In this document: one piece after another, positions 43,135-56,510 of the stretch | How positions within the stretch are numbered: the stretch's first letter is position 1 | Layout of the letters: each line of letters opens with the position of its first letter | Assembly: GCA_028716785.1 (NCBI GenBank) | Contig: JAQUPD010000006.1 | Span: forward strand, 1 to 64,000 | Length of the DNA stretch: 64,000 nt | Reading direction: 5' to 3' | From: Fidelibacterota bacterium | GTDB taxonomy: Bacteria; Fidelibacterota; Fidelibacteria; Fidelibacterales; Fidelibacteraceae | The notes under the pieces: model-generated | The model's input: the letters and a program-made list of their open reading frames with translations, nothing else | What the model was told of the DNA's origin: nothing | The model's database searches: none | Program-made: the position numbers and the translations under genes

Positions 43135-43186
43135 ATTTAAGCAAACATTTTGTATAAATATTATTTTGTTGGTAAATTTTAATATT

Positions 43187-44779
43187 ATGAGAAAGTATTC
43201 ATTATACACATTGTTGTTTTTTTTCTTAGGGATATTTTCAGGATGCACAAGTCGGGGAATTCTTGAAAAACCTGCTGAAGAAAAGCCGAAGTCTTATCCC
43301 ACACGAGCGGTTCAGAAATTTGCTTATGGTGAATTATATCGGCAGGCAGGTGATTATGGCAGAGCTCTTATTGAGTATGAAGAAGCGGCAGCCATCGATT
43401 CAACAAGTCCCATTATTTATGAAAGAATCGGTGAAATCTATTTTGCTCTAAATAGTATGTCAAGAGCAAGAGATGCTTTTATGAAAACTGTGGCATTGAA
43501 TCCTGATAACCCTGAGCTCTACGATATGATTGCGCTGACCTACATTATTGATAGGAAAGCAGAGGAAGCGGAAAAAATCTGGAAATATTTGATTGAAACG
43601 TATCCTGAATATGAGGATGCCTGGTATAATTTGTCGGATTATTATTTTGCTCAAAACGACACGACAAAAGGTCTTGAAATTCTTGAAAAGTTTTATCATA
43701 AAAACCCCGAGAATGCCGATGTTCTTGCGCGAATTGCAGATGTTTTACATCAATCAGGTCGCTATGAGTCATCAATTCCTTATCTTGTAAAATTGATTGA
43801 ATTAGTGCCTGACAATCACCAATTTTATCAACGGCTTTTTACCTCATACTTGGCAGTAGGAAATGTTGAAGAAGCTTATAAAACCTTACAACACTGGCGA
43901 AATCAAGTGGGGGTTACTCCTCAGACGGAACTTTTGTATGCAGATATGTTAATCCGCAATGAAGCATGGGATCAAGCCTTGGATATTCTTTATCGAGGAC
44001 ATTCGCTTTGGCCCGATCAATGGACTTTTCCTCATTTAATTGCAATTGCCTATATTCAAAAAGAAGAGCCTGATAGTGTAAGAAAATATTATAATTTAGC
44101 CTTGAGTAAAGGAACGCCTCTCCCCATTGCCTATCAAAATTATGCTTTTTGGTTGGCAGATCACGGAGATATACAAACAGCTATGGATGTTGTTTTGGAA
44201 GGTCGAGATCTTTATCCCCAAAATGAGGATTTAATGTATCTTGAAGCTTTATTCCTGGATGAACTGGATGAATCACTGAAAGCAATTACTCTTTTGGAAA
44301 ATCTCCGTACGCTCCAGCCAGAGAATGAAGAGGTGTTAAAAATGCTTGCTGCTTTATACGATAAAACGGGGCAACCCGCTCGGGCGGAAGCTCTGTATCA
44401 ACAACTCCTTGACAAAAATGAGGAAGATCCTCTTGTACTAAATAATTATAGCTATCTACTGGCAGTTCAAAATAAAGAGATCGATCGTGCGTGGATGATG
44501 ATTCAAAAAGCGTTGAGTATGGAACCGAACAATGCAGCCTATTTAGATACAGCGGCATGGGTTCTCTATTGCCTAGGACGATATTCTGAAGCCTTGGATT
44601 ATATTAATCGTGCTCTTTTAATCCTTCCCTATGATCATGAAATACTCTATCATAAAGCCATGATTCTTCTTTCAATGGATCAAAAAGATTCAGCTATTGA
44701 ATATCTACAAAAATCCCTCGAAAATAAACCAGATTACAAACCTGCTTTTCTTCAATTGGAGGCAATAAATCATGATTGA
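43187..44779 (+). CDS. TPR-repeat lipoprotein
   Basis: 530 residues from ATG 43187. Signal peptide with lipobox FSGC (Cys about 20). About eleven TPR-like units follow, with canonical residues such as AYGELYRQAGDYGRALIEY, IYERIGEIYFALN and YLDTAAWVLYCLGRYSEAL. Such proteins scaffold outer-membrane assemblies; a specific partner is not indicated. It opens a new unit after the terminator and overlaps the first glycosyltransferase by 8 bases, tying it to the surface-glycan genes. Confidence 0.85.
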   Translation: MRKYSLYTLLFFFLGIFSGCTSRGILEKPAEEKPKSYPTRAVQKFAYGELYRQAGDYGRALIEYEEAAAIDSTSPIIYERIGEIYFALNSMSRARDAFMKTVALNPDNPELYDMIALTYIIDRKAEEAEKIWKYLIETYPEYEDAWYNLSDYYFAQNDTTKGLEILEKFYHKNPENADVLARIADVLHQSGRYESSIPYLVKLIELVPDNHQFYQRLFTSYLAVGNVEEAYKTLQHWRNQVGVTPQTELLYADMLIRNEAWDQALDILYRGHSLWPDQWTFPHLIAIAYIQKEEPDSVRKYYNLALSKGTPLPIAYQNYAFWLADHGDIQTAMDVVLEGRDLYPQNEDLMYLEALFLDELDESLKAITLLENLRTLQPENEEVLKMLAALYDKTGQPARAEALYQQLLDKNEEDPLVLNNYSYLLAVQNKEIDRAWMMIQKALSMEPNNAAYLDTAAWVLYCLGRYSEALDYINRALLILPYDHEILYHKAMILLSMDQKDSAIEYLQKSLENKPDYKPAFLQLEAINHD

Positions 44780-45701
44780 TGTGTCCATTGTTATTCCTGT
44801 CTTCAATGAAGAAGGTACCGTTCAACCCTTAACGGAAAAAATTCTCTCCGTATTGAACCGTGAAAGTCTTACAGGAGAGATTTATTTTGTAGATGATGGT
44901 TCAACAGATAAAACGACACAAATTTTAGATGAATTGGAAAAAACATTTGATAATGTTCATGTAATTCATTTCAGAAGAAATCGGGGGAAAGCAGCTGCTC
45001 TCCAGGCAGGCTTTCGAAAAGCAAAAGGTAAATTTGTCATCACCATGGATGGGGATCTTCAGGATGACCCTGAAGAAATTCCAAACCTTCTTCAAAAATT
45101 ACATGAAGGGTGGGATATGGTCTCGGGATGGAAAAAAATTCGCCATGATCCTGTAAGCAAAACACTCCCCAGCAAAATTTTTAATAAAACAACCAGTTTT
45201 CTCACTGGAATTCGCATTCATGATTTTAATTGTGGATTAAAAGCTTATCGCAAAGAAGTTGTTCAATCCATCAGTCTTTATGGGGAACTCCATCGCTATA
45301 TCCCGGTTTTAGCAAAAATGGAAGGATTCCGTGTTACCGAGATTCCTGTCACTCACCATCCACGGACATCCGGAAAAAGTAAATACGGAACCAGCAGGAT
45401 GCTAAAAGGTTTTTTCGACCTTATTACCGTTCTTTTCCTTGCTCGTTTTACACAACGTCCCATGCATTTTTTTGGGATGTTGGGAATTTTATCGGTGATA
45501 ATTGGTGTCATTGTTGAAATATGGGTGCTTGTTTTAAAATATGCCTTTCATGAACCCTTTCAATCTCATTTGGCCATGCTGCTTTTTGGGATTTTGCTCT
45601 TAATTTTAGGAATTCAACTTTTTTCGATGGGACTCATCGGTGAAATGCTTGTCTATCAATTCAGAAAAAATCGAGGAAAGTATGGAGAAGAAAATGAATA
45701 A
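44772..45701 (+). CDS. GT2 family glycosyltransferase, dolichol-phosphate-mannose-synthase-like
   Basis: 309 residues. GT-A fold with VSIVIPVFNEEGTV, FVDDGSTDKT and the MDGDLQDDPEEI nucleotide/metal site; then FNCGLKAYRKEVV and HHPRTSGKSKYG. Two membrane helices lie at about 235-260 and 270-297. This GtrB/ArnC/DPMS-like architecture transfers a sugar to a polyprenyl phosphate at the inner membrane. Overlaps the next gene by 20 bases. Confidence 0.93.
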   Translation: MIDVSIVIPVFNEEGTVQPLTEKILSVLNRESLTGEIYFVDDGSTDKTTQILDELEKTFDNVHVIHFRRNRGKAAALQAGFRKAKGKFVITMDGDLQDDPEEIPNLLQKLHEGWDMVSGWKKIRHDPVSKTLPSKIFNKTTSFLTGIRIHDFNCGLKAYRKEVVQSISLYGELHRYIPVLAKMEGFRVTEIPVTHHPRTSGKSKYGTSRMLKGFFDLITVLFLARFTQRPMHFFGMLGILSVIIGVIVEIWVLVLKYAFHEPFQSHLAMLLFGILLLILGIQLFSMGLIGEMLVYQFRKNRGKYGEENE

Positions 45702-46728
45702 GGAATATCCCTATCTTTTTTCTGTCATTATTCCTACTTATAATCGTCTTTCTGAAATTCAGGAACTGCTTTTCTCCCTTCGCAATCAAACACTGTCTCC
45801 AGATTCCTTTGAAGTCTTAATTGTTGATGATGGATCTACCGATAAAACAGAAGAATTTGTCGAAGCCTTTAAAAACGAAGCCCCCTTTACCCTTCGCTTT
45901 ATCCGTCAAGATCATCAAGGACCTGGTGCTGCCAGAAATCTTGGTATGCAGCATGCCAAGGGGAATTATTTTATTTTTGTGGATAGTGATTGTATCGCGC
46001 ATCCAAACTGGCTTCAGGCTTATGCCAAAGCTATTTCAAAACAAAAAGTGGCAGGTTTTGGAGGACCTGATCACGTAAGAAAAGATTTTTCTCCACTCCA
46101 AAAAGCAATTGATTACAGCATGACATCCTTTCTTACAACGGGAGGTATTCGAGGGCATTCTAAAAAAAAGTTATCTAAATACTACCCCCGGAGTTTCAAC
46201 ATGGGTGTTCGTGCTGATATTGTTAAAAAGATAGGTGGAATGAATGATCTTCGCCATGGTCAAGATATTGAATTTAGCAATCGAATTCTGGCAGTGGGAG
46301 AACCTGTCATCAAGGTAGATGATGCCATTGTCTATCATAAACGCCGTACGTCTCTCCAAAAATTTTTTAAACAGGTCTTTAATTGGGGTGTTGCACGCAT
46401 TAACCTTTATAAAATTGATAAGAAGATGCTTGAACCCATTCACTTTTTACCTGCTATTGGAACCCTTGTGATATTTCTTGTTCTTATTCTTTTTATTTTT
46501 AATCCCGGTTTTTTTTGGCCTCTGTTGGCGTTGGGAGTTGCTATTCTTTTGCTTATGGGGATTCACGGAGTCATTCGCTATAAAGATATCCGTGTTTTTT
46601 TTTATATCCCTCTGGTTGTGCCCATCCAAATTATTGGGTATGGTCTGGGATTTATGGACGCCTTTTTAAAGCGCATTCTTTTAAAAAAAGAGCCCTACAC
46701 AGGATTTGTTCGTAATTATTATCAATAA
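45682..46728 (+). CDS. GT2 family glycosyltransferase with C-terminal membrane helices
   Basis: About 348 residues. ATG 45682 follows GAGGAAAGT; ATG 45694 follows GGAGAAG and overlaps the previous stop as ATGAATAA. Either may be used, and the longer frame to 45640 is unlikely. GT-A fold: FSVIIPTYNRLSEI, LIVDDGSTDKTE, GPGAARNLGMQHAKG and IFVDSDCIAHPN. The segment FNMGVRADIVKKIGGMND is characteristic of GT2 acceptor regions. About three membrane helices follow between residues 245 and 330. Donor and acceptor are unknown. Confidence 0.9.
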   Translation: MEKKMNKEYPYLFSVIIPTYNRLSEIQELLFSLRNQTLSPDSFEVLIVDDGSTDKTEEFVEAFKNEAPFTLRFIRQDHQGPGAARNLGMQHAKGNYFIFVDSDCIAHPNWLQAYAKAISKQKVAGFGGPDHVRKDFSPLQKAIDYSMTSFLTTGGIRGHSKKKLSKYYPRSFNMGVRADIVKKIGGMNDLRHGQDIEFSNRILAVGEPVIKVDDAIVYHKRRTSLQKFFKQVFNWGVARINLYKIDKKMLEPIHFLPAIGTLVIFLVLILFIFNPGFFWPLLALGVAILLLMGIHGVIRYKDIRVFFYIPLVVPIQIIGYGLGFMDAFLKRILLKKEPYTGFVRNYYQ

Positions 46729-46749: not shown

Positions 46750-49206
46750 ATGACGGACAAAAAGGTAAAAATCTCGGCATGGGAATCATTAAGTCCAAAG
46801 AAAACTCTTTTAATTGCTCTAATTATTCTGGCGATTCCTGTGTTAATCATGTATGCCGAATTTATTTTTGAAGGGGTCAGGCCGTTTGGGGTAGATTCAA
46901 TAGCCTCTATAGCTGGCACTCATCAATATCTGGAATGGGAAAAAGAAAGTGGTGAAAGAGCCCTTTGGAATCCAAGCTATTTTTGCGGGATGCCAACCTA
47001 TCATCGGTTAACTCCTCCTTTATTTCATCTTGATACCCTTGTCTCTTATCTTGGGAAGGTTATCTATCTCTATTTTTGGTATTTGCTCCTTGGCGGTTTT
47101 GGCATGTTTATCCTTCTTTATTATCGTAAAATTCCCTGGTATGCTGCTCTTATTGTTGCAATAGGATTTATTTTACTTCCTCATTGGCAATCCCTTATTC
47201 ATGTAGGTCACTATAGTAAATTGCGGGCTTTTATGGTTATGCCCTGGTTAATTTTAAGCTTTCAGCACCTTGTTGAAAAACGGCAATGGATAAGCGTTGG
47301 TTTTTTTGCTCTTATTTTTTCCTGGATGGTGCGAACTCAACACATTCAAGTTGTTTTTTATGGAATTTTGATTCTTCTTTTTCTCTACATTGTTCCCTTT
47401 TTTCAGCCCCTTTTTAAAAAAGAATACCGGAAATTTTTGGATTTGCTGCTAAAATTTGTCGTTGGTGTTACTCTAACGATCATGATATCAGCGCAACCCT
47501 TTTTTAGTCTGCAAGAATACACACCCCATTCTACACGGGGTGGAAATTCCCTGAAAATCGGCGAAGAAAAAGTCTCAGCCGCTCAAGCAAAGGGCGTTGA
47601 TTTGGAATATGCAACCCGATGGTCTCTTGCACCAAAAGAAATTCTCAACTTTTTCTTCCCTCGCTTTTTTGGCGGAATGTCTGCTGAAAAATATGATGGG
47701 TCAGCTATTCCGCAATTAAAAGGACAAACTATCCCAGGCTATTGGGGCGACATGCCCTTTACCCAAAGCTACGATTCCATGGGATTTCTTCTCTTTCTTT
47801 TCGCACTGCTGGGAGTCCTGCGCTATCATAAAAAAGGAGAAGTCCGAGCTTTAGCAATTTTTGCCGTTTTTTCCATTCTTTTAGGATTTGGCCACCATTT
47901 TATGCCCCTTTATAAACTCTTTTTTAACTATTTTCCCTATTTTTCTAAATTTCGAGTCCCTGTGATGATTGTCAATATGACCTTCATTTCTTTATTAATT
48001 TTAGCAGGATACGGACTTAAGAGTCTTTTCCATCCCTCTGAAAAGAAAAAGGATTTTCTTGAACTTTATCTTTTTGGAGGGGGGATAATTTTTATTCTTC
48101 TTTTACTTCTTTTGAGGGGAAGCTTTTCTTATATGGCTCCAGGAGAGGCAGGCCGCTATCCGCGCGAAACTCTCACTATTTTGCAAACCATTCGAAAAGA
48201 AATTTTAACGGGTGAACTCTTGCGCGCCTTTTGGGTAACGCTCTTTGCTGGTGTAGCAGTTACAGCTTGGCGGTTTAAAAAATTGGCAAAAATTCCCCTC
48301 TTTTTAATAATCTTAGCGCTTGTTTCAATCGAATTGGGCTCTATCACAAAAAGAGCCTATGATCAAATTCCTCTCGTAAATAGAAAAGTTATGGAAAGAC
48401 GCCAATTTACAGAGTCTGAGATAACCCGAACACTTGAACAGGCACCGGTAGGATATCGGGCTTTGGTCTTGGGACAAGGCTTTCAAGATAATTATTATGC
48501 TTATTGGTATCCTCTTATTAATGGGTATAGTGCCATAAAGCTCCAAATTATTCAAGATGCCATCGATTATCTCCTTTTTAAAGGATCAGGACCAACTCGC
48601 TTAAATTGGAATGTGGTCAACATGTTAAATGGTCGCTATATTATTGTTCCGGGCCAGCTAGACCTTCCTTTTCTTGAAATGCGAGCCATTGATAGAAATC
48701 GACAAGAAATCCTCTATGAAAATAAAAATGCTCTTCCTAAAGCCTGGTTGGTACAACATGTTGAAAAAGTTTCTACTTGGGAAGAGGCGATTTCTCTGAT
48801 GAATCAAGAGACTTTTGATCCTTCAAACGTTTCCTATGCACTTCATTGGGAGGGGGAATATCGTGGAGAAGGGGAGATTTACCTTGAGTCATATACTCCC
48901 AATACCCTTACATTTTCTGTAGATATCCCAGAAAAACAATTTGCTGTGATTTCTGAAATGTTCTACGATGAGGGATGGCGTGTGGAATTTCAAGGAAAAG
49001 AATTACCTATTCTTCAGGTAAATTATCTTCTTCGGGGAGTGGAAATTCCTGCAGGACAAGGGACGTTGGTTATGACGTTTAATCCTCCTACCTATCAACG
49101 AGCCCTTATTATGTGCTGGATAGGGGTGATTATTGCCTGGTTGTTGATTGGTCTTGGATTCTGGCAGCGCTACAAAAACGGTTCAGAGCTACCATCTGAT
49201 GCCTAA
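46750..49206 (+). CDS. YfhO-family multi-pass membrane protein, putative glycosyltransferase
   Basis: 818 residues. About thirteen hydrophobic segments fill residues 20-560, and a large soluble domain follows (about 565-780) before a final membrane helix near 785-808. The N-terminal loop GVDSIASIAG and the WNPSYFCGMPTYH motif resemble the periplasmic loop of YfhO and related GT-C proteins, some of which attach sugars from polyprenyl-phosphate donors. It lies directly between GT2 and GT4 genes; the GT2 at 44772 could provide its lipid-linked sugar (inference). Confidence 0.85.
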   Translation: MTDKKVKISAWESLSPKKTLLIALIILAIPVLIMYAEFIFEGVRPFGVDSIASIAGTHQYLEWEKESGERALWNPSYFCGMPTYHRLTPPLFHLDTLVSYLGKVIYLYFWYLLLGGFGMFILLYYRKIPWYAALIVAIGFILLPHWQSLIHVGHYSKLRAFMVMPWLILSFQHLVEKRQWISVGFFALIFSWMVRTQHIQVVFYGILILLFLYIVPFFQPLFKKEYRKFLDLLLKFVVGVTLTIMISAQPFFSLQEYTPHSTRGGNSLKIGEEKVSAAQAKGVDLEYATRWSLAPKEILNFFFPRFFGGMSAEKYDGSAIPQLKGQTIPGYWGDMPFTQSYDSMGFLLFLFALLGVLRYHKKGEVRALAIFAVFSILLGFGHHFMPLYKLFFNYFPYFSKFRVPVMIVNMTFISLLILAGYGLKSLFHPSEKKKDFLELYLFGGGIIFILLLLLLRGSFSYMAPGEAGRYPRETLTILQTIRKEILTGELLRAFWVTLFAGVAVTAWRFKKLAKIPLFLIILALVSIELGSITKRAYDQIPLVNRKVMERRQFTESEITRTLEQAPVGYRALVLGQGFQDNYYAYWYPLINGYSAIKLQIIQDAIDYLLFKGSGPTRLNWNVVNMLNGRYIIVPGQLDLPFLEMRAIDRNRQEILYENKNALPKAWLVQHVEKVSTWEEAISLMNQETFDPSNVSYALHWEGEYRGEGEIYLESYTPNTLTFSVDIPEKQFAVISEMFYDEGWRVEFQGKELPILQVNYLLRGVEIPAGQGTLVMTFNPPTYQRALIMCWIGVIIAWLLIGLGFWQRYKNGSELPSDA

Positions 49207-50491
49207 AGTCTTGATTATAACATACTATTGGCCACCTGCAGGAGGGCCGGGAGTGCAACGCATATTGGGCTTTGTGCGGTATCTCCCCATGTTTGGTTGG
49301 GAACCTGTGGTAGTTACAGTATTAAAAGGAGATTATTCGAACGAAGATCCTTCTTTACTCCAACAAGTACCTGAAAAGGTGAAGGTTTATAAAATTCCCG
49401 CCCGAGAACCTTTTAATCTGTATCGCCGTCTTACGGGGAAAAAAAGAGATGAGAAAATTCCTACTCATATTCTGGCTGCAGAAAAGAATCAATCCTTCAG
49501 GGAACGACTCTCTCGTTTTATTCGTCTGAATTTTTTTATTCCTGATGCCCGCATTGGGTGGATTCCATATTTAACAAAAACTGGGACACAGATCGTTCAA
49601 AAAGAAATCCCTGATATTCTTATCAGTTCTTCTCCGCCCCATTCTTTACAACTGGCTACAAAGAAGATTGCACGGAAAACAGACATTAAATGGATTGCCG
49701 ATTTTAGAGATCCGTGGACAGATTTTTTCCATTATCAGGAAAAAGGACGTTTATGCTTTGCACGATATCTTGATAGATATTTTGAAAAATCGATTCTTAA
49801 AAGTGTCGATGCTGCAGTTACTGTGAGTCCTTCCCTTAGCGCTTTATTTAAAAAGAAAGTCCCTACCTTAAAAGCAACGGTTATTACCAATGGTTTTGAT
49901 CCGGAAGAGTATAACGATCTGTTAATAAAAAAACACCCACACTTCACCCTTTTTTATGCCGGTAGCATGAGAAAATCCCAGTGTCCCATGACCTTCTTCG
50001 ATGCCTTGCAAGCTCTCATTAAAAAGGGAAAAACACCCTTTAATATTCGGATTGCCGGGAGTATTCATCCTCATATCAAACAAGCGATAGAAGAGAGGGA
50101 TTTAACAGAGTCTTTTACTTTTCTTGGGTATCTTGAACATCGAAAAGTGCTTCAAGAAATGATAAATGCTCATCTTCTTCTTTTGCTGATTCCTAATACA
50201 GAACAAAATGAAGGGATTCTTACGGGGAAACTTTTTGAATATATGGCATCAGGAACACCCATTCTGGGGTTTGGCCCCGAACAAGGAGATGCAGCCGCTA
50301 TCCTAAAAGAAACAAAAACAGGGATAATGATTGATTATGACAAAGACCCAACATCCCTTTTGGAAATAGCCTACGATGCAGTTAAAGTCGAGCAAAAACA
50401 GGGGAAGCATCACATTCCTGACGCTGTTTTAAAATATAGCCGATATGAAACGACACGAAAACTTGCAGAATTACTGGAAGACATCTTGTGA
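49199..50491 (+). CDS. GT4 family glycosyltransferase
   Basis: 430 residues from ATG 49199, which overlaps the YfhO gene stop by 8 bases; the frame extends to 49148 but only through that gene. GT-B fold: VLIITYYWPPAGGPGVQR at the N-terminus (acceptor domain), SSSPPHSLQLATKKIA, WIADFRDPWTDFF, then the donor domain with NGFDPEEYN, LFYAGSMR, FTFLGYLEHRK and the EGILTGKLFEYMASGTPILG nucleotide-sugar site. Likely transfers a hexose in surface glycan assembly. The next 1.46 kb contain no intact gene. Confidence 0.92.
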   Translation: MPKVLIITYYWPPAGGPGVQRILGFVRYLPMFGWEPVVVTVLKGDYSNEDPSLLQQVPEKVKVYKIPAREPFNLYRRLTGKKRDEKIPTHILAAEKNQSFRERLSRFIRLNFFIPDARIGWIPYLTKTGTQIVQKEIPDILISSSPPHSLQLATKKIARKTDIKWIADFRDPWTDFFHYQEKGRLCFARYLDRYFEKSILKSVDAAVTVSPSLSALFKKKVPTLKATVITNGFDPEEYNDLLIKKHPHFTLFYAGSMRKSQCPMTFFDALQALIKKGKTPFNIRIAGSIHPHIKQAIEERDLTESFTFLGYLEHRKVLQEMINAHLLLLLIPNTEQNEGILTGKLFEYMASGTPILGFGPEQGDAAAILKETKTGIMIDYDKDPTSLLEIAYDAVKVEQKQGKHHIPDAVLKYSRYETTRKLAELLEDIL

Positions 50492-50605
50492 TATTAAAAA
50501 ATATTTTTTTATGGCCTGTAAATTTTCTCTGATCTTAAAAGGCCAAAACAGGCATTTGAGATTGTCAATGACATTCGTTCAGAAAAATGAGGGTTTTATT
50601 ACTTT

Positions 50606-51481
50606 ATGTTTCGGGAAGAGAGAATTGCTGCTGGAAAAGATCAGAAATTAATCAAGCACTTTGATAAGAAAGGTATTCCTCTCAATAAAACTTATATCGA
50701 TGTCAGCGATAAAGAATACGTTTATTTTCCAATTTTTTGTGGACAGATGGGGCTTGCAGTCTATCATACCTAGCTGAAAACTGGGACTGAACAGGATAAA
50801 GAACGGTTTTTACACTTTGCGGAATGGTTTTATCATCATGCAGATCTCAACGAAGAAATGTGTGCCCGCTGGCTGACGGATTTTTCCTTGCCCGCCTATA
50901 ACAATCAAGGTCCATGGCAATCGGCCTTTTCCCAAAGTCGGGGCATTTCTATCCTTTTGAAGGAAGGATAAATAACTGGTAGAAAGAATTATTTTGTTCT
51001 GGCAGAAAAGGCATTGCTTCCTTTTTCTTTGGCTGTTGAACAAGGATGGGTAACCGTATTTACACCCTGGGGACCTTTTTACGAAGAATATACAGCGTCG
51101 GTACCTACTCTCGTTTTGAATGGAATGATTGTTCTCTCTTTGGGTTATATGATTTTGTAAGAGTTTTTCAAAATCATGAAGGTGCCCGTTCCCTTTTTGA
51201 AGAGGGTATCAATACTCTTGAAAAGATTCTTCCCGAAAGTATGATAAGGGATATTGGTCAAGATATAATATGTTCAGGGCAGACTGGTATCTTCCTGTTG
51301 ATTCTGCAACCATCGGATATCAACGCCTCCACGCTACTCAACTCAATGTGCTTTATCGATTGACATGGAAAGAGATTTTTAGACATATCATGATCGTTTT
51401 AGAGAACAAGACAACCTGATCAATGCAATAAAAATGTATCACGTTAAATATCAGGCTTTGAAGACAGTGAACAGACTGTAA
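50606..51481 (+). pseudogene. Decayed D-glucuronyl C5-epimerase-like gene (C5-epim_C domain)
   Basis: Translating piecewise gives one family, but three frames are needed. Frame at 50606: stop TAG 50771, then HFAEWFYHHADLN and GPWQSAFSQSRGISILLKE, stop TAA 50969, then FYEEYTASVPTLVLNG and MIVLSLG to about 51144. A shift at about 51144 gives LYDFVRVFQNHEGARSLFEEG and INTLEKILPE. A shift near 51238 gives YDKGYWSRYNMF and YQRLHATQLNVLYRLTW. A shift near 51383 gives YHDRFREQDNLINAI, ending at TAA 51479-51481. The W-x-S-A-x-x-Q-x-(R)GIS, YEEY-P-VLNG, LYD, YDxGYWSRY and LHxxQL pattern is the heparosan-glucuronate C5-epimerase C-terminal domain. Two nonsense codons and three frameshifts make it a pseudogene. 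The 5' part before 50606 is not recognisable. Confidence 0.8.
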
Positions 51482-51950
51482 TGCACGAGATATATAGAAA
51501 AATTCTTGATTCCTATTCTTACTTTGGCAACTCTTCTATAAAATAGTGGAAATACTTCTGAGTAATTAAACTTTTGTTTTTTGATAGAACGGTTATATCA
51601 TTTTTCTCAAATCTCAGACAATTCTTTAAGAATAACTTCGATGCGGTTAGAATCAATGAAACAGGGATTTTTATAGCACACTTATATATCTTAAATGATT
51701 CACCTTGCTGTAGGCAATTGCCCTATCGCACTATGGTTGAGAAAAGGCGTAAAAGGATCCACTTAAAGAAAATACCCCGTATGTGTCTGAATCTTCGATG
51801 AAATGAAACAGAGGTTCAAAGATTTACGCTATTTTGCTCCAAAACACGAGAAGTACACAATCAAAATTCCCTTATTTATAAGCATTTATAGGAATAAATA
51901 TGCCTTTTAATATGATTTACCCTTAAACATTGAAATGATTAAATTATAAA
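51482..51950. other. Gene-free stretch, possible debris of a decayed gene
   Basis: Between the decayed epimerase and the flippase gene. Only short frames occur (for example a 75-codon frame at 51574-51801), with no family motif that I recognise and no ribosome site. Base composition is AT-rich. It may be remains of another glycan gene or promoter sequence for the flippase gene; I cannot support a function. Confidence 0.35.
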
Positions 51951-53417
51951 ATGCTTGATAACCTTAAGTACATGGCAAAACATTCCAGCATTTATCTCAT
52001 TGGGAATATATCATCCAAACTTATTGGCCTGGTACTTCTTCCTTTGTATACCTCACGAATCACTCTTTCAGATTATGGTTTTTATGCTCTATTTGACGTC
52101 TCTATCCAGTTTTGTCAAGGCTTTTTGCATTTAGGAATTCCCAATGCACTTTTTCGATGGATGAATTTGGAACAAAAGGAAACAGAAAAAAAAGCCATCT
52201 TTTTTTCATCCTACCTCTTTACTGTTTTGTTTCTTCTTATCATTTGTCTGCCCCTCTTTTTTCTTTCGACATCTCTTGCTCGGGGAATTTTAGGGGATGC
52301 CTCTATGAATATTTATTTTCAGCTAAGTACACTTATTATCTTTTTTTCTATTTTGAATATGATTCCCCTTTTTACCCTTCGGGTTCGCGAAAAATCACTC
52401 TATTACGTGGTGGCTGTCCTTGCAAAATTTGTTGTTCAATTGCTTGTAACCATTCTTGCGATTGTCCAGTATGACAAAGGGATTCTTGGAATTTTTCTGG
52501 GACTTGTCGTCAGTGAAGTCTTGATGTTTGTGATGTTGCTTCCTTTTGTTATTCGGCAAACAGTCTTACGCGTTCTTCCCAAAGAGTTGAAAGAAATGAT
52601 TCGTTTTGGCTTTCCCTTATCGTTATCAGGCCTTGCCAGTAGAGTCTTAAATATTGGTGATCGCTATGTATTGGGATATCTTACCACTCTAGAAGTGGTG
52701 GGGGCTTATGATATTGGTTATAGAATTGCAAATGCCGTGGATGTTATTCTTATCCATTCCTTTCAAAATTCTTTTCAACAATTGGTCTGGAAAAATGTGA
52801 AAGCTCCCAATATTCGACGCTTGGTTCGAAAATTATTAGATTATTTTCTTTTTGTGTTTTTATGGATTATTCTTGCTGTGTCTGTTTTTTCCTACGACCT
52901 TGTCAACCTGTTAACAGTGACGTATGAAGAATACCTTGCAGCAGCTGTGATTATTCCCACCATTCTGCTATCAATTGTCTTTCGAGGTGCCGGTTTTATT
53001 TTTAATCAAACCCTACAAATGGCCAATAAAACTGCACCCATTGCTTATATTATGACGGGAACAGCCATTTTGAATATAGGACTCAATTTTCTTTTTATTC
53101 CTTTTTGGGGGATGCAAGGTGCAGCCCTGGCAACGCTTTTTTCATTTATTATTTATTCTGGTATTAGTGCCTACCTCAGTGAAAAATATTTTCAGATAAC
53201 TTATACATGGTCCAACATAGGCAAACTCTTTGTTACGACTGTATTCCTTTATGGCGCTATTACACTTTTACCTCCTTTACCGCCAGTTCCTCTGATCATC
53301 ATAAAAATTGTGTTTATTGCCCTTTTCCCTTTCCTCCTTTATGTTTTTCGCTTCTATGAACTCCGCGAACTTACTACCCTTAAAAATTTGTTGAGTAAAA
53401 AGTCCCTAAAAAAGTAG
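51951..53417 (+). CDS. Wzx-type lipid-linked oligosaccharide flippase
   Basis: 488 residues with 12-14 hydrophobic segments. The N-terminus HSSIYLIGNISSKLIGLVLLPLYT plus DYGFYALFDV is characteristic of polysaccharide-transporter (PST/RfbX) members of the MOP superfamily, and NIGDRYVLGYL in the middle matches the charged loop of this group. Moves undecaprenyl-linked glycan units across the inner membrane. It fits the upstream glycosyltransferases; no Wzy polymerase was identified in the window. No strong ribosome site is seen at ATG 51951. Confidence 0.9.
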   Translation: MLDNLKYMAKHSSIYLIGNISSKLIGLVLLPLYTSRITLSDYGFYALFDVSIQFCQGFLHLGIPNALFRWMNLEQKETEKKAIFFSSYLFTVLFLLIICLPLFFLSTSLARGILGDASMNIYFQLSTLIIFFSILNMIPLFTLRVREKSLYYVVAVLAKFVVQLLVTILAIVQYDKGILGIFLGLVVSEVLMFVMLLPFVIRQTVLRVLPKELKEMIRFGFPLSLSGLASRVLNIGDRYVLGYLTTLEVVGAYDIGYRIANAVDVILIHSFQNSFQQLVWKNVKAPNIRRLVRKLLDYFLFVFLWIILAVSVFSYDLVNLLTVTYEEYLAAAVIIPTILLSIVFRGAGFIFNQTLQMANKTAPIAYIMTGTAILNIGLNFLFIPFWGMQGAALATLFSFIIYSGISAYLSEKYFQITYTWSNIGKLFVTTVFLYGAITLLPPLPPVPLIIIKIVFIALFPFLLYVFRFYELRELTTLKNLLSKKSLKK

Positions 53418-53489: not shown

Positions 53490-56400
53490 ATGAGAATTCA
53501 CCGAATAAAACATATTCTCTCACTAAACATTCTTTTCATGAGTTTAGGTTTTATGGCTTGTGATAAAGAGTCGATAGACCTTGAAAATGTTGAATTTTTG
53601 GGGCCTTATCCGGGATCAAAAATTTTGGGGAATGGAACATTTTGCCTTTCAGCGTCAGGATTACCGCGAGACACCTTAGCCTTGCCCGGCATTCAAACTC
53701 TGTATCTTAAAGATTATACGCGAAATTTTGTCAACTCCATTCGTTTAGACCTAAAAGGGGTTCAGGGCCCTCAGTGGCTTGCTTCTTCAAGCGATCCTTT
53801 TTTTGCTGAAGCAACCCAATGGAAAGCAGGGTCTCTTCAGTATGTAACACGTCTTTATGCCCTTCCTGATCCAAACATAATGGCCTTTGTATGGGAAGGA
53901 GAAATTGTCAATACGGGTCATCGAAAAATTTCCTTTTATCTTGAACCCATTTTTGATTTTTCCCGTCCTAGTACCGCTGATTATGGCGAGACCAAGGTTC
54001 AGTATTTTGTGGATGAATTTATTTTAACGGTAGGTTTTACAAATCCTCAAAAAAATGATATTGAAAAGGGATACTTTAGCAGATCAATTACCTTGGCGCC
54101 TTCTGAACGTCATAAATTTTCTTTATTAGTGACAATTTCAGAAAATCAGCTTCAGGGATTACACGTTTGGGATACCTTAGCCGTGAAAGACCTTCGATCT
54201 TTTGCTCAGGCAGGATGGGAAGCCTGGCTTGCCGAAGGAGAAGAGCCGTCTTTTGTCTCTCGGGAGGATTCGCTTCGCTTCCGCGCCAACCTTGTCTCGG
54301 TGAAAGCTCTTACCTTAAACGGTGCTGTCCCTGCAGATATTACCGGCCAGTTTGTTACAAATGGACTCCCACAGCTTTATCCTCGTGATGCTTTCATGAC
54401 AGCCCGCATGTTTTTGGAAACGGGGCACCTCTCTGAAGTAAGGCAAATTCTTTGTTTTTGGGAAAATGTTCCCTATAAAGAAACAGGGGAGTGGTTCGCT
54501 CGCTATGATGCCTTTGGTAGTCCCACTGAAGGGGGAAGTGGCGCACGATATGATGTGCCAGAGTGGGATAGCAATGGCTATTATACAACTCTTGTTTATG
54601 ATGCGTTTCTTCGACATCACATATGGATTGGCGATTTTCAGCGTATTCAAGAACTTTTGAATTTTGTTGAACTCCGGTTAAGTTCCGATGGCTTGCTTTA
54701 CGAAGGGGGAATTGTGGAATGGGAAGGATTTCTTCCTTCAACCAATATGAGTCTGGCAGCAGCTTTTAAACAAGCTGCTTTTATGGCAACATGGAGAAAT
54801 GAAAAAAACTTGTCCTCACGATGGCTCACTATCGCCAAAAGCATAGATAAAGGATTGGAAAGGCTCTTCGATCCTATAGACAAAACCTATAAAGATTTAA
54901 GACATAACACCTACGCCTGGAACACCTCGGCACTTTTTGGATGGATTTGGGGCTATGAAGACCATCAGCACCTGCAACTTAGCACTGAATATTGGTGGAA
55001 TCACTGTCGAAAAATGGAGAATGGCATCCAATATTTTGATAGTGAAGGCTATGGGGATGACCTTTTTGGATTTACGACCGCCGCAATGGCTCAGTATTAT
55101 GCTGCTCATCACAGATCAGACCGTTATTTGCCCTTAAAAACTTGGCTCGATGCGAATACAAATATCTACGGACTAATGCCAGAGCGTATTTACTACCCTT
55201 CTCAGGACGGAAAAATAAGTGAAGCGTCACCCCTTACATGGTGTTCTGCAGAATATGTGATGGCCCTTTTGGAAGGATCCAGACACTTGATGTTAAGTGA
55301 AGATATTCAACAAACAGAAAAATTGGCAAGCAGCTTGTGTCAAAACGTACTCTCGGCACAGATTCCTCTTAAGGATTCCCTATCCCGCGAGGCATGTGTC
55401 CATTTTTTAAAAGACCCTTCTTTTTGGCAAAATAATTTTTGTCGTGATAAAGAAACCATTGAAGCCCTTTTAGGCTCAGCATCCCTTAAAAGAGCTGGAA
55501 TTTCTGTCAATATGGGCTCCTATCCCTTAACGTTGCTCAATGATACCCCTTTTGATATTCCCTTTCGTATTTCTCTCACACAACCTGTAAGTCGTATACA
55601 CGTTGTGTCCAAATATGCCACACCAGACTGGCTCATTGAAACACCCTCGGTAAATGAAAAGGGCAAATATACTGTTCGTGTAATTCCTTCTCTTTCCTTA
55701 CCTGTTTCGGATCACTTTGGCTACTTTTTGGTGGAATGGAATTTTTATGTGGAAGATCTTTGTGTCCCTATTCTTTTTCCTATTCACTATCATATTCTTT
55801 CTCCGTACAAAATATTTTTAAAAGATTCGCTTGTTGTAAACAATCCCGTTTTTTTCGGTCTAAACAGATCAGATAGTCCCATTTATCTTTGGTGGGATGA
55901 GGATTCTTTGAGTCAAACACTGACATTACTGCCAGGTTTTGAGGATGAGTTCGTTATTCCTTTTCCTGATACAGCAAACTGGATAGATAGCCTTCATCTC
56001 CATATTTTGTATCATAACGAAGAGTATGTTGAATCTTTTACCTGGATACCTTGCTGGGAAATTGATCTTTCAGAAGGCTGGGAATTTAATCCAATCCAAC
56101 AGGTGAATCAGTGTTATAAACTTGAATATCAAGACTCCTTTTGGAATGCGATTCCCGTTCCTGCTTTTTGGGAAGATGTTGGATTTCCTACCCTGAATGG
56201 TACGTATTGGTATCGAAAAGTCTTTTCGTTGCCCCATACTTTTCATAATCATCGAATATGGCTGGATTTTGGGGGAATCGATGATGAAGATGAAACCTTT
56301 ATTAATTGTGATAGAGTGGGTACCACAGCAGGATGGACTCTTTATCGACGATACCAAATTTCTCCTGGAAAAGCTTGGATTTTGTGGAATAAAAATAATT

Positions 56401-56510
56401 TTATTCACGTGAAAGTGACAGATTTGGGTGATAAAGGAGGAATATATAAGGGGCCGGTACGATTTTTAATTGAAAAGACCCCAAAAAGTCAAGATGTTCT
56501 TGTAGAATAG
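53490..56510 (+). CDS. Lipoprotein with glucoamylase-like (GH15-type) catalytic region and jelly-roll C-terminus
   Basis: 1006 residues. N-terminal signal with FMAC lipobox (Cys about 24). Residues about 30-260 are a beta-rich super-sandwich. Residues about 270-620 form an alpha/alpha barrel with QLYPRDAFMTARMFLETG, EWDSNGYYTTLVYDAFL, SLAAAFKQAAFMATW, NTSALFGWIWGYEDH and ASPLTWCSAEYVMALL. The final W-C/S-A-E-x-x-x-A-L pattern and YPRDA resemble GH15/GH65-type glycosidases. Residues about 840-1000 look like the GH2 sugar-binding jelly roll (GTYWYRKVFSLP, IWLDFGGIDDED, NFIHVKVTD). Catalytic acids are not assigned. Likely an outer-membrane glycan hydrolase; substrate unknown. Confidence 0.75.
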   Translation: MRIHRIKHILSLNILFMSLGFMACDKESIDLENVEFLGPYPGSKILGNGTFCLSASGLPRDTLALPGIQTLYLKDYTRNFVNSIRLDLKGVQGPQWLASSSDPFFAEATQWKAGSLQYVTRLYALPDPNIMAFVWEGEIVNTGHRKISFYLEPIFDFSRPSTADYGETKVQYFVDEFILTVGFTNPQKNDIEKGYFSRSITLAPSERHKFSLLVTISENQLQGLHVWDTLAVKDLRSFAQAGWEAWLAEGEEPSFVSREDSLRFRANLVSVKALTLNGAVPADITGQFVTNGLPQLYPRDAFMTARMFLETGHLSEVRQILCFWENVPYKETGEWFARYDAFGSPTEGGSGARYDVPEWDSNGYYTTLVYDAFLRHHIWIGDFQRIQELLNFVELRLSSDGLLYEGGIVEWEGFLPSTNMSLAAAFKQAAFMATWRNEKNLSSRWLTIAKSIDKGLERLFDPIDKTYKDLRHNTYAWNTSALFGWIWGYEDHQHLQLSTEYWWNHCRKMENGIQYFDSEGYGDDLFGFTTAAMAQYYAAHHRSDRYLPLKTWLDANTNIYGLMPERIYYPSQDGKISEASPLTWCSAEYVMALLEGSRHLMLSEDIQQTEKLASSLCQNVLSAQIPLKDSLSREACVHFLKDPSFWQNNFCRDKETIEALLGSASLKRAGISVNMGSYPLTLLNDTPFDIPFRISLTQPVSRIHVVSKYATPDWLIETPSVNEKGKYTVRVIPSLSLPVSDHFGYFLVEWNFYVEDLCVPILFPIHYHILSPYKIFLKDSLVVNNPVFFGLNRSDSPIYLWWDEDSLSQTLTLLPGFEDEFVIPFPDTANWIDSLHLHILYHNEEYVESFTWIPCWEIDLSEGWEFNPIQQVNQCYKLEYQDSFWNAIPVPAFWEDVGFPTLNGTYWYRKVFSLPHTFHNHRIWLDFGGIDDEDETFINCDRVGTTAGWTLYRRYQISPGKAWILWNKNNFIHVKVTDLGDKGGIYKGPVRFLIEKTPKSQDVLVE

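What the first reader, a model, noticed from the sequence alone, without database searches (positions are those of the whole stretch)
50606..51481. Decayed glucuronyl C5-epimerase gene in the glycan cluster
Reading across three frames recovers the C5-epimerase C-terminal domain, including GPWQSAFSQSRGIS, YEEY, VLNG, YDKGYWSRY and YQRLHATQLNVLY. C5-epimerases act on heparosan- or alginate-like chains and are rare in bacteria. Its loss between intact glycosyltransferase and flippase genes implies a recent change in surface glycan chemistry, from an iduronate-containing or related polymer to something else.
Basis: partly seen in the sequence, partly recalled or inferred. Interest (0 to 1): 0.65.

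Follow-up and report, generated by a model that had tools for sequence, protein, structure and literature searches.

The report
Recently broken sugar-acid epimerase gene
This bacterium of the phylum Fidelibacterota carries the wreck of a gene for an enzyme that flips a sugar acid inside a surface sugar chain; its relatives keep the gene intact beside the same partner gene, so this lineage recently lost that step, which is a real but modest case of gene loss.

Summary
Read in frame it is 70% identical (323 residues) to an intact 331-aa gene in the same genus, and is broken by three stops and four frameshifts. It is the only true copy in the genome. Intact orthologues lie directly after a GT4 glycosyltransferase gene, often overlapping it by 4 nt, in Fidelibacterota, Calditrichota and Cloacimonadota. 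The decay is recent: codon-position divergence still looks constrained, but 8 of 86 family-invariant residues have changed, against 0-2 in most intact orthologues and 0 of 267 in three neighbouring genes. That also argues against assembly error. Best reading: recent, lineage-specific loss of the uronate-epimerising step of an otherwise intact surface-glycan cluster. The substrate is unknown; heparosan is untested, and alginate epimerases are another family. A side finding may matter more: three sister genomes carry a divergent epimerase (human N510 is D, Y560 is F) beside AsnB, a deacetylase-family gene and, in two of them, sulfotransferases.

The parts
50490..51481 (+). Pseudogene of a type-A D-glucuronyl C5-epimerase (PF06662), full length; terminal stop TAA 51479-51481
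50588..50590 (+). In-frame premature stop TGA
50771..50773 (+). In-frame premature stop TAG
50969..50971 (+). In-frame premature stop TAA
50523..50524 (+). Frameshift (approximate position)
51131..51132 (+). Frameshift (approximate position)
51235..51239 (+). Frameshift (approximate position)
51381..51382 (+). Frameshift (approximate position)
49148..50491 (+). Intact GT4 glycosyltransferase, partner of the epimerase (true start may be the ATG at 49199); 64% to G001, 38% to the G004 type
46750..49206 (+). YfhO-like membrane protein
45640..46728 (+). GT2 glycosyltransferase
44772..45701 (+). GT2 glycosyltransferase
43166..44779 (+). TPR protein, conserved first gene of the locus
51482..51950 (.). 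Non-coding spacer with no homologue in 20 relatives
51951..53417 (+). Intact Wzx-type flippase (Polysacc_synt); 68-69% to G002/G004/G005, 23% to G001
53490..56510 (+). Conserved large protein with a C-terminal GH2_N-like sugar-binding domain

Best explanation
The feature is a recently inactivated, single-copy pseudogene of a GlcE-type D-glucuronyl C5-epimerase. The intact enzyme, translated together with the GT4 gene before it, probably converted a glucuronate laid down in a cell-surface or periplasmic glycan into its C5 epimer (iduronate) before flippase export. This species lost the epimerase by several stops and frameshifts while keeping the transferases and flippase, so its glycan is predicted to be exported with the uronate unepimerised. 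Shown here: family, full-length homology, lesions, single copy, conserved position, recent loss of constraint, intact neighbours. Inferred: the activity, the substrate, the order of steps and the effect on the glycan.
For: PF06662 hits. Full-length 70% alignment with 7 lesions; all three stop codons occur, which argues against a stop-reassignment reading. Frame-aware score far above controls. Sister of intact G001 with support 98/96. Only true copy in the genome. Same locus order in G001, G002, G004, G005, and GT4 directly before the epimerase in Calditrichota and Cloacimonadota, often with 4-nt overlap. All five GlcE catalytic residues (E499, Y500, N510, Y560, Y578; PMC13308652) are present in the intact type-A orthologues and still readable in the pseudogene. 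The predicted fold of the intact orthologue has human and zebrafish GlcE as its top eight PDB hits, E 2.9e-07 to 1.7e-06. Recent decay: position identities 0.77/0.84/0.46 are like intact genes, but 8/86 invariant residues changed, against 0-2 in all but one orthologue and 0/88, 0/96, 0/83 in three intact neighbours. A UDP-glucose 6-dehydrogenase-like protein, so a likely GlcA donor, is present.
Against: No reads were available, so assembly error is argued against but not excluded. No enzyme of this exact subgroup is known to me to have been assayed. The epimerase may have been replaced in function by an unrelated enzyme not sought here. Which glycan this cluster makes is unknown.
Confidence: 0.85

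Rival explanations
1. The gene is intact in nature and the frameshifts and stops are sequencing or assembly errors in a draft assembly.
For: G000 is a draft of 71 contigs and no reads could be examined; overall divergence still looks like a constrained gene.
Against: Seven lesions, three of them stops, fall in one gene while the neighbours on both sides are open. Changes at 8 of 86 family-invariant residues, against 0 of 267 in three neighbours, and a terminal branch twice that of G001 (0.42 against 0.21), are expected from decay and not from scattered errors.
Confidence: 0.07
2. The lesions mark a still-used gene, read through by programmed frameshifting or stop recoding.
For: All five catalytic residues survive.
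Against: Three different stop codons and four frameshifts would all need recoding; intact orthologues need none; invariant residues are being lost.
Confidence: 0.01
3. The pseudogene is a by-product of cluster exchange: a recombination joined a G001-type left half (GT4 and epimerase) to a G004-type flippase, and the epimerase then decayed or was broken at the join.
For: GT4 and epimerase are G001-like, but the flippase is G002/G004/G005-like; an orphan spacer lies between them.
Against: The flippase identity to G004 (68%) is like that of flanking genes (65-72%), which fits vertical descent, with GT4 and epimerase replaced in the G002/G004/G005 clade and the flippase replaced in G001. Homology to the epimerase runs to its last codon, and lesions are spread along the gene.
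Confidence: 0.07

Closest known systems
GlcE, heparan sulfate D-glucuronyl C5-epimerase (human 6HZZ/6I01, zebrafish 4PW2/4PXQ)
   Same: PF06662 domain; all five catalytic residues in the intact orthologues; best sequence and fold match in the PDB.
   Different: 331 aa against 617 in human (own knowledge); mainly the helical catalytic part, with most of the beta-sandwich and the N-terminal hairpin missing by length; the copy here is dead.
[quoted passage not shown]
   Same: Bacterial GlcE-like enzyme with activity shown on desulfated heparin or heparan sulfate.
   Different: Not compared directly here because its sequence was not at hand; its natural target is unknown.
Agl32 of Halobacterium salinarum (PMC13308652)
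   Same: A prokaryotic C5-epimerase acting on a short assembled glycan in a glycosylation gene cluster: a working model for the role.
   Different: It lacks the GlcE catalytic residues and has a different predicted structure, so it is an analogue and not a family member.

Membership tests
D-glucuronyl C5-epimerase, GlcE type (PF06662) | Match to the C5-epim_C profile above its curated cut-off | tested here: met
   102.4 bits for the composite, 51.3 and 24.5 bits for separate pieces, cut-off 23.3
D-glucuronyl C5-epimerase, GlcE type (PF06662) | Catalytic residues E499, Y500, N510, Y560, Y578 (human numbering) | tested here: met
   All five in intact type-A orthologues and readable in the pseudogene; D and F at N510 and Y560 in G002/G004/G005/G028
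D-glucuronyl C5-epimerase, GlcE type (PF06662) | GlcE-like fold of the catalytic domain | tested here: met
   Model of the intact G001 orthologue, pLDDT 75.5, pTM 0.82; top eight PDB hits are GlcE, though TM-score is only 0.47 on query length
D-glucuronyl C5-epimerase, GlcE type (PF06662) | Three-domain layout of the animal enzyme (beta-hairpin, beta-sandwich, helical domain) | tested here: not met
   331 aa; the phmmer alignment matches essentially the C-terminal catalytic part. It is a minimal bacterial form; this layout defines the animal enzymes and not PF06662.
D-glucuronyl C5-epimerase, GlcE type (PF06662) | An intact, translatable gene in this genome | tested here: not met
   3 stops and 4 frameshifts; no other true copy. 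It is a pseudogene.
D-glucuronyl C5-epimerase, GlcE type (PF06662) | GlcA to IdoA activity on a glycan | not testable with these tools
   Needs a biochemical assay of an intact orthologue
Heparosan/heparan-type polymer pathway | Heparosan synthase-type polymerase in the genome | not tested
   No specific profile was at hand; the GT2/GT4 enzymes of the locus match only general families
Alginate C5-epimerase (AlgG/AlgE) | Right-handed parallel beta-helix epimerase profile | tested here: not met
   The only Pfam family hit is PF06662, with a helical model

The most novel reading that the evidence does not exclude
The GT4 plus C5-epimerase pair is a widespread bacterial module that builds iduronate-type surface glycans. 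In the genus it has diverged three ways: kept (G001), lost (this genome), and replaced by a divergent epimerase with AsnB, a PIG-L deacetylase-family gene and sulfotransferases (G002, G004; G005 in part), which would be a bacterial counterpart of heparan sulfate-style modification.
Probability: 0.25. Interest if true: 0.7.

Novelty: new member of a known kind. Interest (0 to 1): 0.35.

Why it matters
[quoted passage not shown] The intact relatives found here, tied to one glycosyltransferase gene in several phyla, give a testable set of candidates, and this genome gives a natural loss to compare with. The pseudogene alone is ordinary gene loss.

Tried and rejected
Rfam scan of the window: nothing. 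Spacer 51482-51950: no Pfam hit for the three of its six frames that were scanned, no match to the sister cargo genes, no DNA homologue in 20 relatives, no terminator. G003 as a test of the loss: no hit for the epimerase or YfhO, but its copy of the gene at 53490 is only partial, apparently cut by a contig end, so it is uninformative. Weak PF06662 hits in ~600-aa proteins of sister genomes (24-25 bits) are not counted as epimerases. A search of solved structures for the GT4 gave nothing, so its donor sugar stays unknown. Two original papers on bacterial epimerases (PMC3068255, PMC3750135) were not held.

Full report
What was checked. The quoted motifs are in the sequence, in three frames. The separate open pieces match PF06662 at 1.3e-13 and 2.1e-05, and joined with X at each break at 2.7e-29. 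A frame-aware alignment against the intact gene of G001 (331 aa) covers residues 2-331 at window 50490-51478, with 225 of 323 residues identical, three in-frame stops (TGA 50588, TAG 50771, TAA 50969) and four frameshifts near 50523, 51131, 51235 and 51381. The same scoring gives 1139 here and at most 45 on shuffled, reversed or other window DNA.

Whose gene it is. The genome belongs to Fidelibacterota (formerly Candidatus Marinimicrobia): contig C101 of same-genus genome G001 is the UBA6817 contig DKER01000210.1 (same length, 100% match). The genome has no other true epimerase copy. Intact copies exist in same-genus genomes G001, G002, G004 and G005, in nine genomes of two other genera of the family, and, at 56-69% identity to G001, in Calditrichota, Cloacimonadota, one Saprospiraceae genome and other Fidelibacterota.

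The locus. In five genomes of the genus the order is TPR, GT2, GT2, YfhO-like, GT4, epimerase, cargo, flippase, large GH2_N-bearing protein (Pfam). In G001 nothing lies between epimerase and flippase, and its flippase is only 23% identical to the window's. In G002 and G004 eleven genes lie there: AsnB, PIG-L, ATP-grasp, LysR, a probable outer-membrane protein without a Pfam name, a sulfonate-type ABC transporter (three genes), GT4 and two sulfotransferases; in G005 the contig ends after the transporter. In the window only the dead epimerase and a 469-base spacer remain. Window GT4 and pseudogene are G001-like (64% and 70%, against 38-39% to G004), but the flippase is G004-like (68%). The simplest history is vertical descent in the window's lineage, replacement of GT4 and epimerase plus cargo in the G002/G004/G005 clade, and flippase replacement in G001; this is an inference.

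The partner. The GT4 gene directly precedes the epimerase in most loci across phyla, with a 4-nt overlap in eight of those examined. Some genomes of a sister genus (G006, G008, G016, G017, G018) keep the epimerase in a different neighbourhood. AsnB or a divergent AsnB-like gene is often next door; this genome has no match to the G004 AsnB.

How recent. Identity by codon position between pseudogene and G001 (0.77, 0.84, 0.46) is like that of intact genes, so the gene was under constraint for most of the time since the split. Yet 8 of 86 residues invariant in 22 intact orthologues have changed, against 0-2 in all but one orthologue and 0 of 267 for three intact neighbours, and the window branch is 0.42 against 0.21 for G001. 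This fits recent decay and speaks against random assembly error, although reads were not available. Third positions are near saturation, so no date is given.

What the intact enzyme does. The catalytic residues of human GlcE, E499, Y500, N510, Y560 and Y578 (PMC13308652; Y560/Y578 also discussed in PMC8006597), are all present in the 22 type-A orthologues. A model of the G001 enzyme (pLDDT 75.5, with low confidence around the active-site loops) has human and zebrafish GlcE as its top eight PDB hits. A TuaD-like UDP-glucose 6-dehydrogenase (below NCBIfam's cut-off for that exact name) lies in a capsule-type cluster of this genome at C11, so a glucuronate donor is likely. Activity, substrate and the changed glycan are inferred.

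Verdict. As a finding it is ordinary lineage-specific gene loss; the conserved GT4-epimerase module and the sister clade's cargo are the more interesting leads.

Noticed in passing
L023:8451-9458 (G004), and the G002, G005, G028 copies: A divergent epimerase clade (support 100/100) has D at human N510 and F at human Y560, shared by all four genomes and 88-92% conserved among the three of the genus, so it is not decaying and may have a different activity.
   Followed up: partly
G002:C42:81148-92120 and G004:C1:375460-386429: Beside that epimerase lie AsnB, a PIG-L deacetylase-family gene (weak BshB1 similarity), a SsuA-type sulfonate ABC transporter and two sulfotransferases. A strong APS kinase hit occurs in G002, G003 and G004 but not in G000, G001 or G005. 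It recalls heparan sulfate modification.
   Followed up: partly
window 51482-51950: A 469-base orphan spacer with no homologue in 20 relatives and no terminator; what it once was is unknown.
   Followed up: yes
window 53490-56510: A conserved neighbour of 1006 aa in all five same-genus loci; only its C-terminal sugar-binding domain has a family name.
   Followed up: partly
L092:2550-4406, L095:7698-9548, L107:5882-7747: A ~620-aa protein directly after the epimerase in several phyla, with only weak AsnB/GATase similarity or no Pfam hit.
   Followed up: partly
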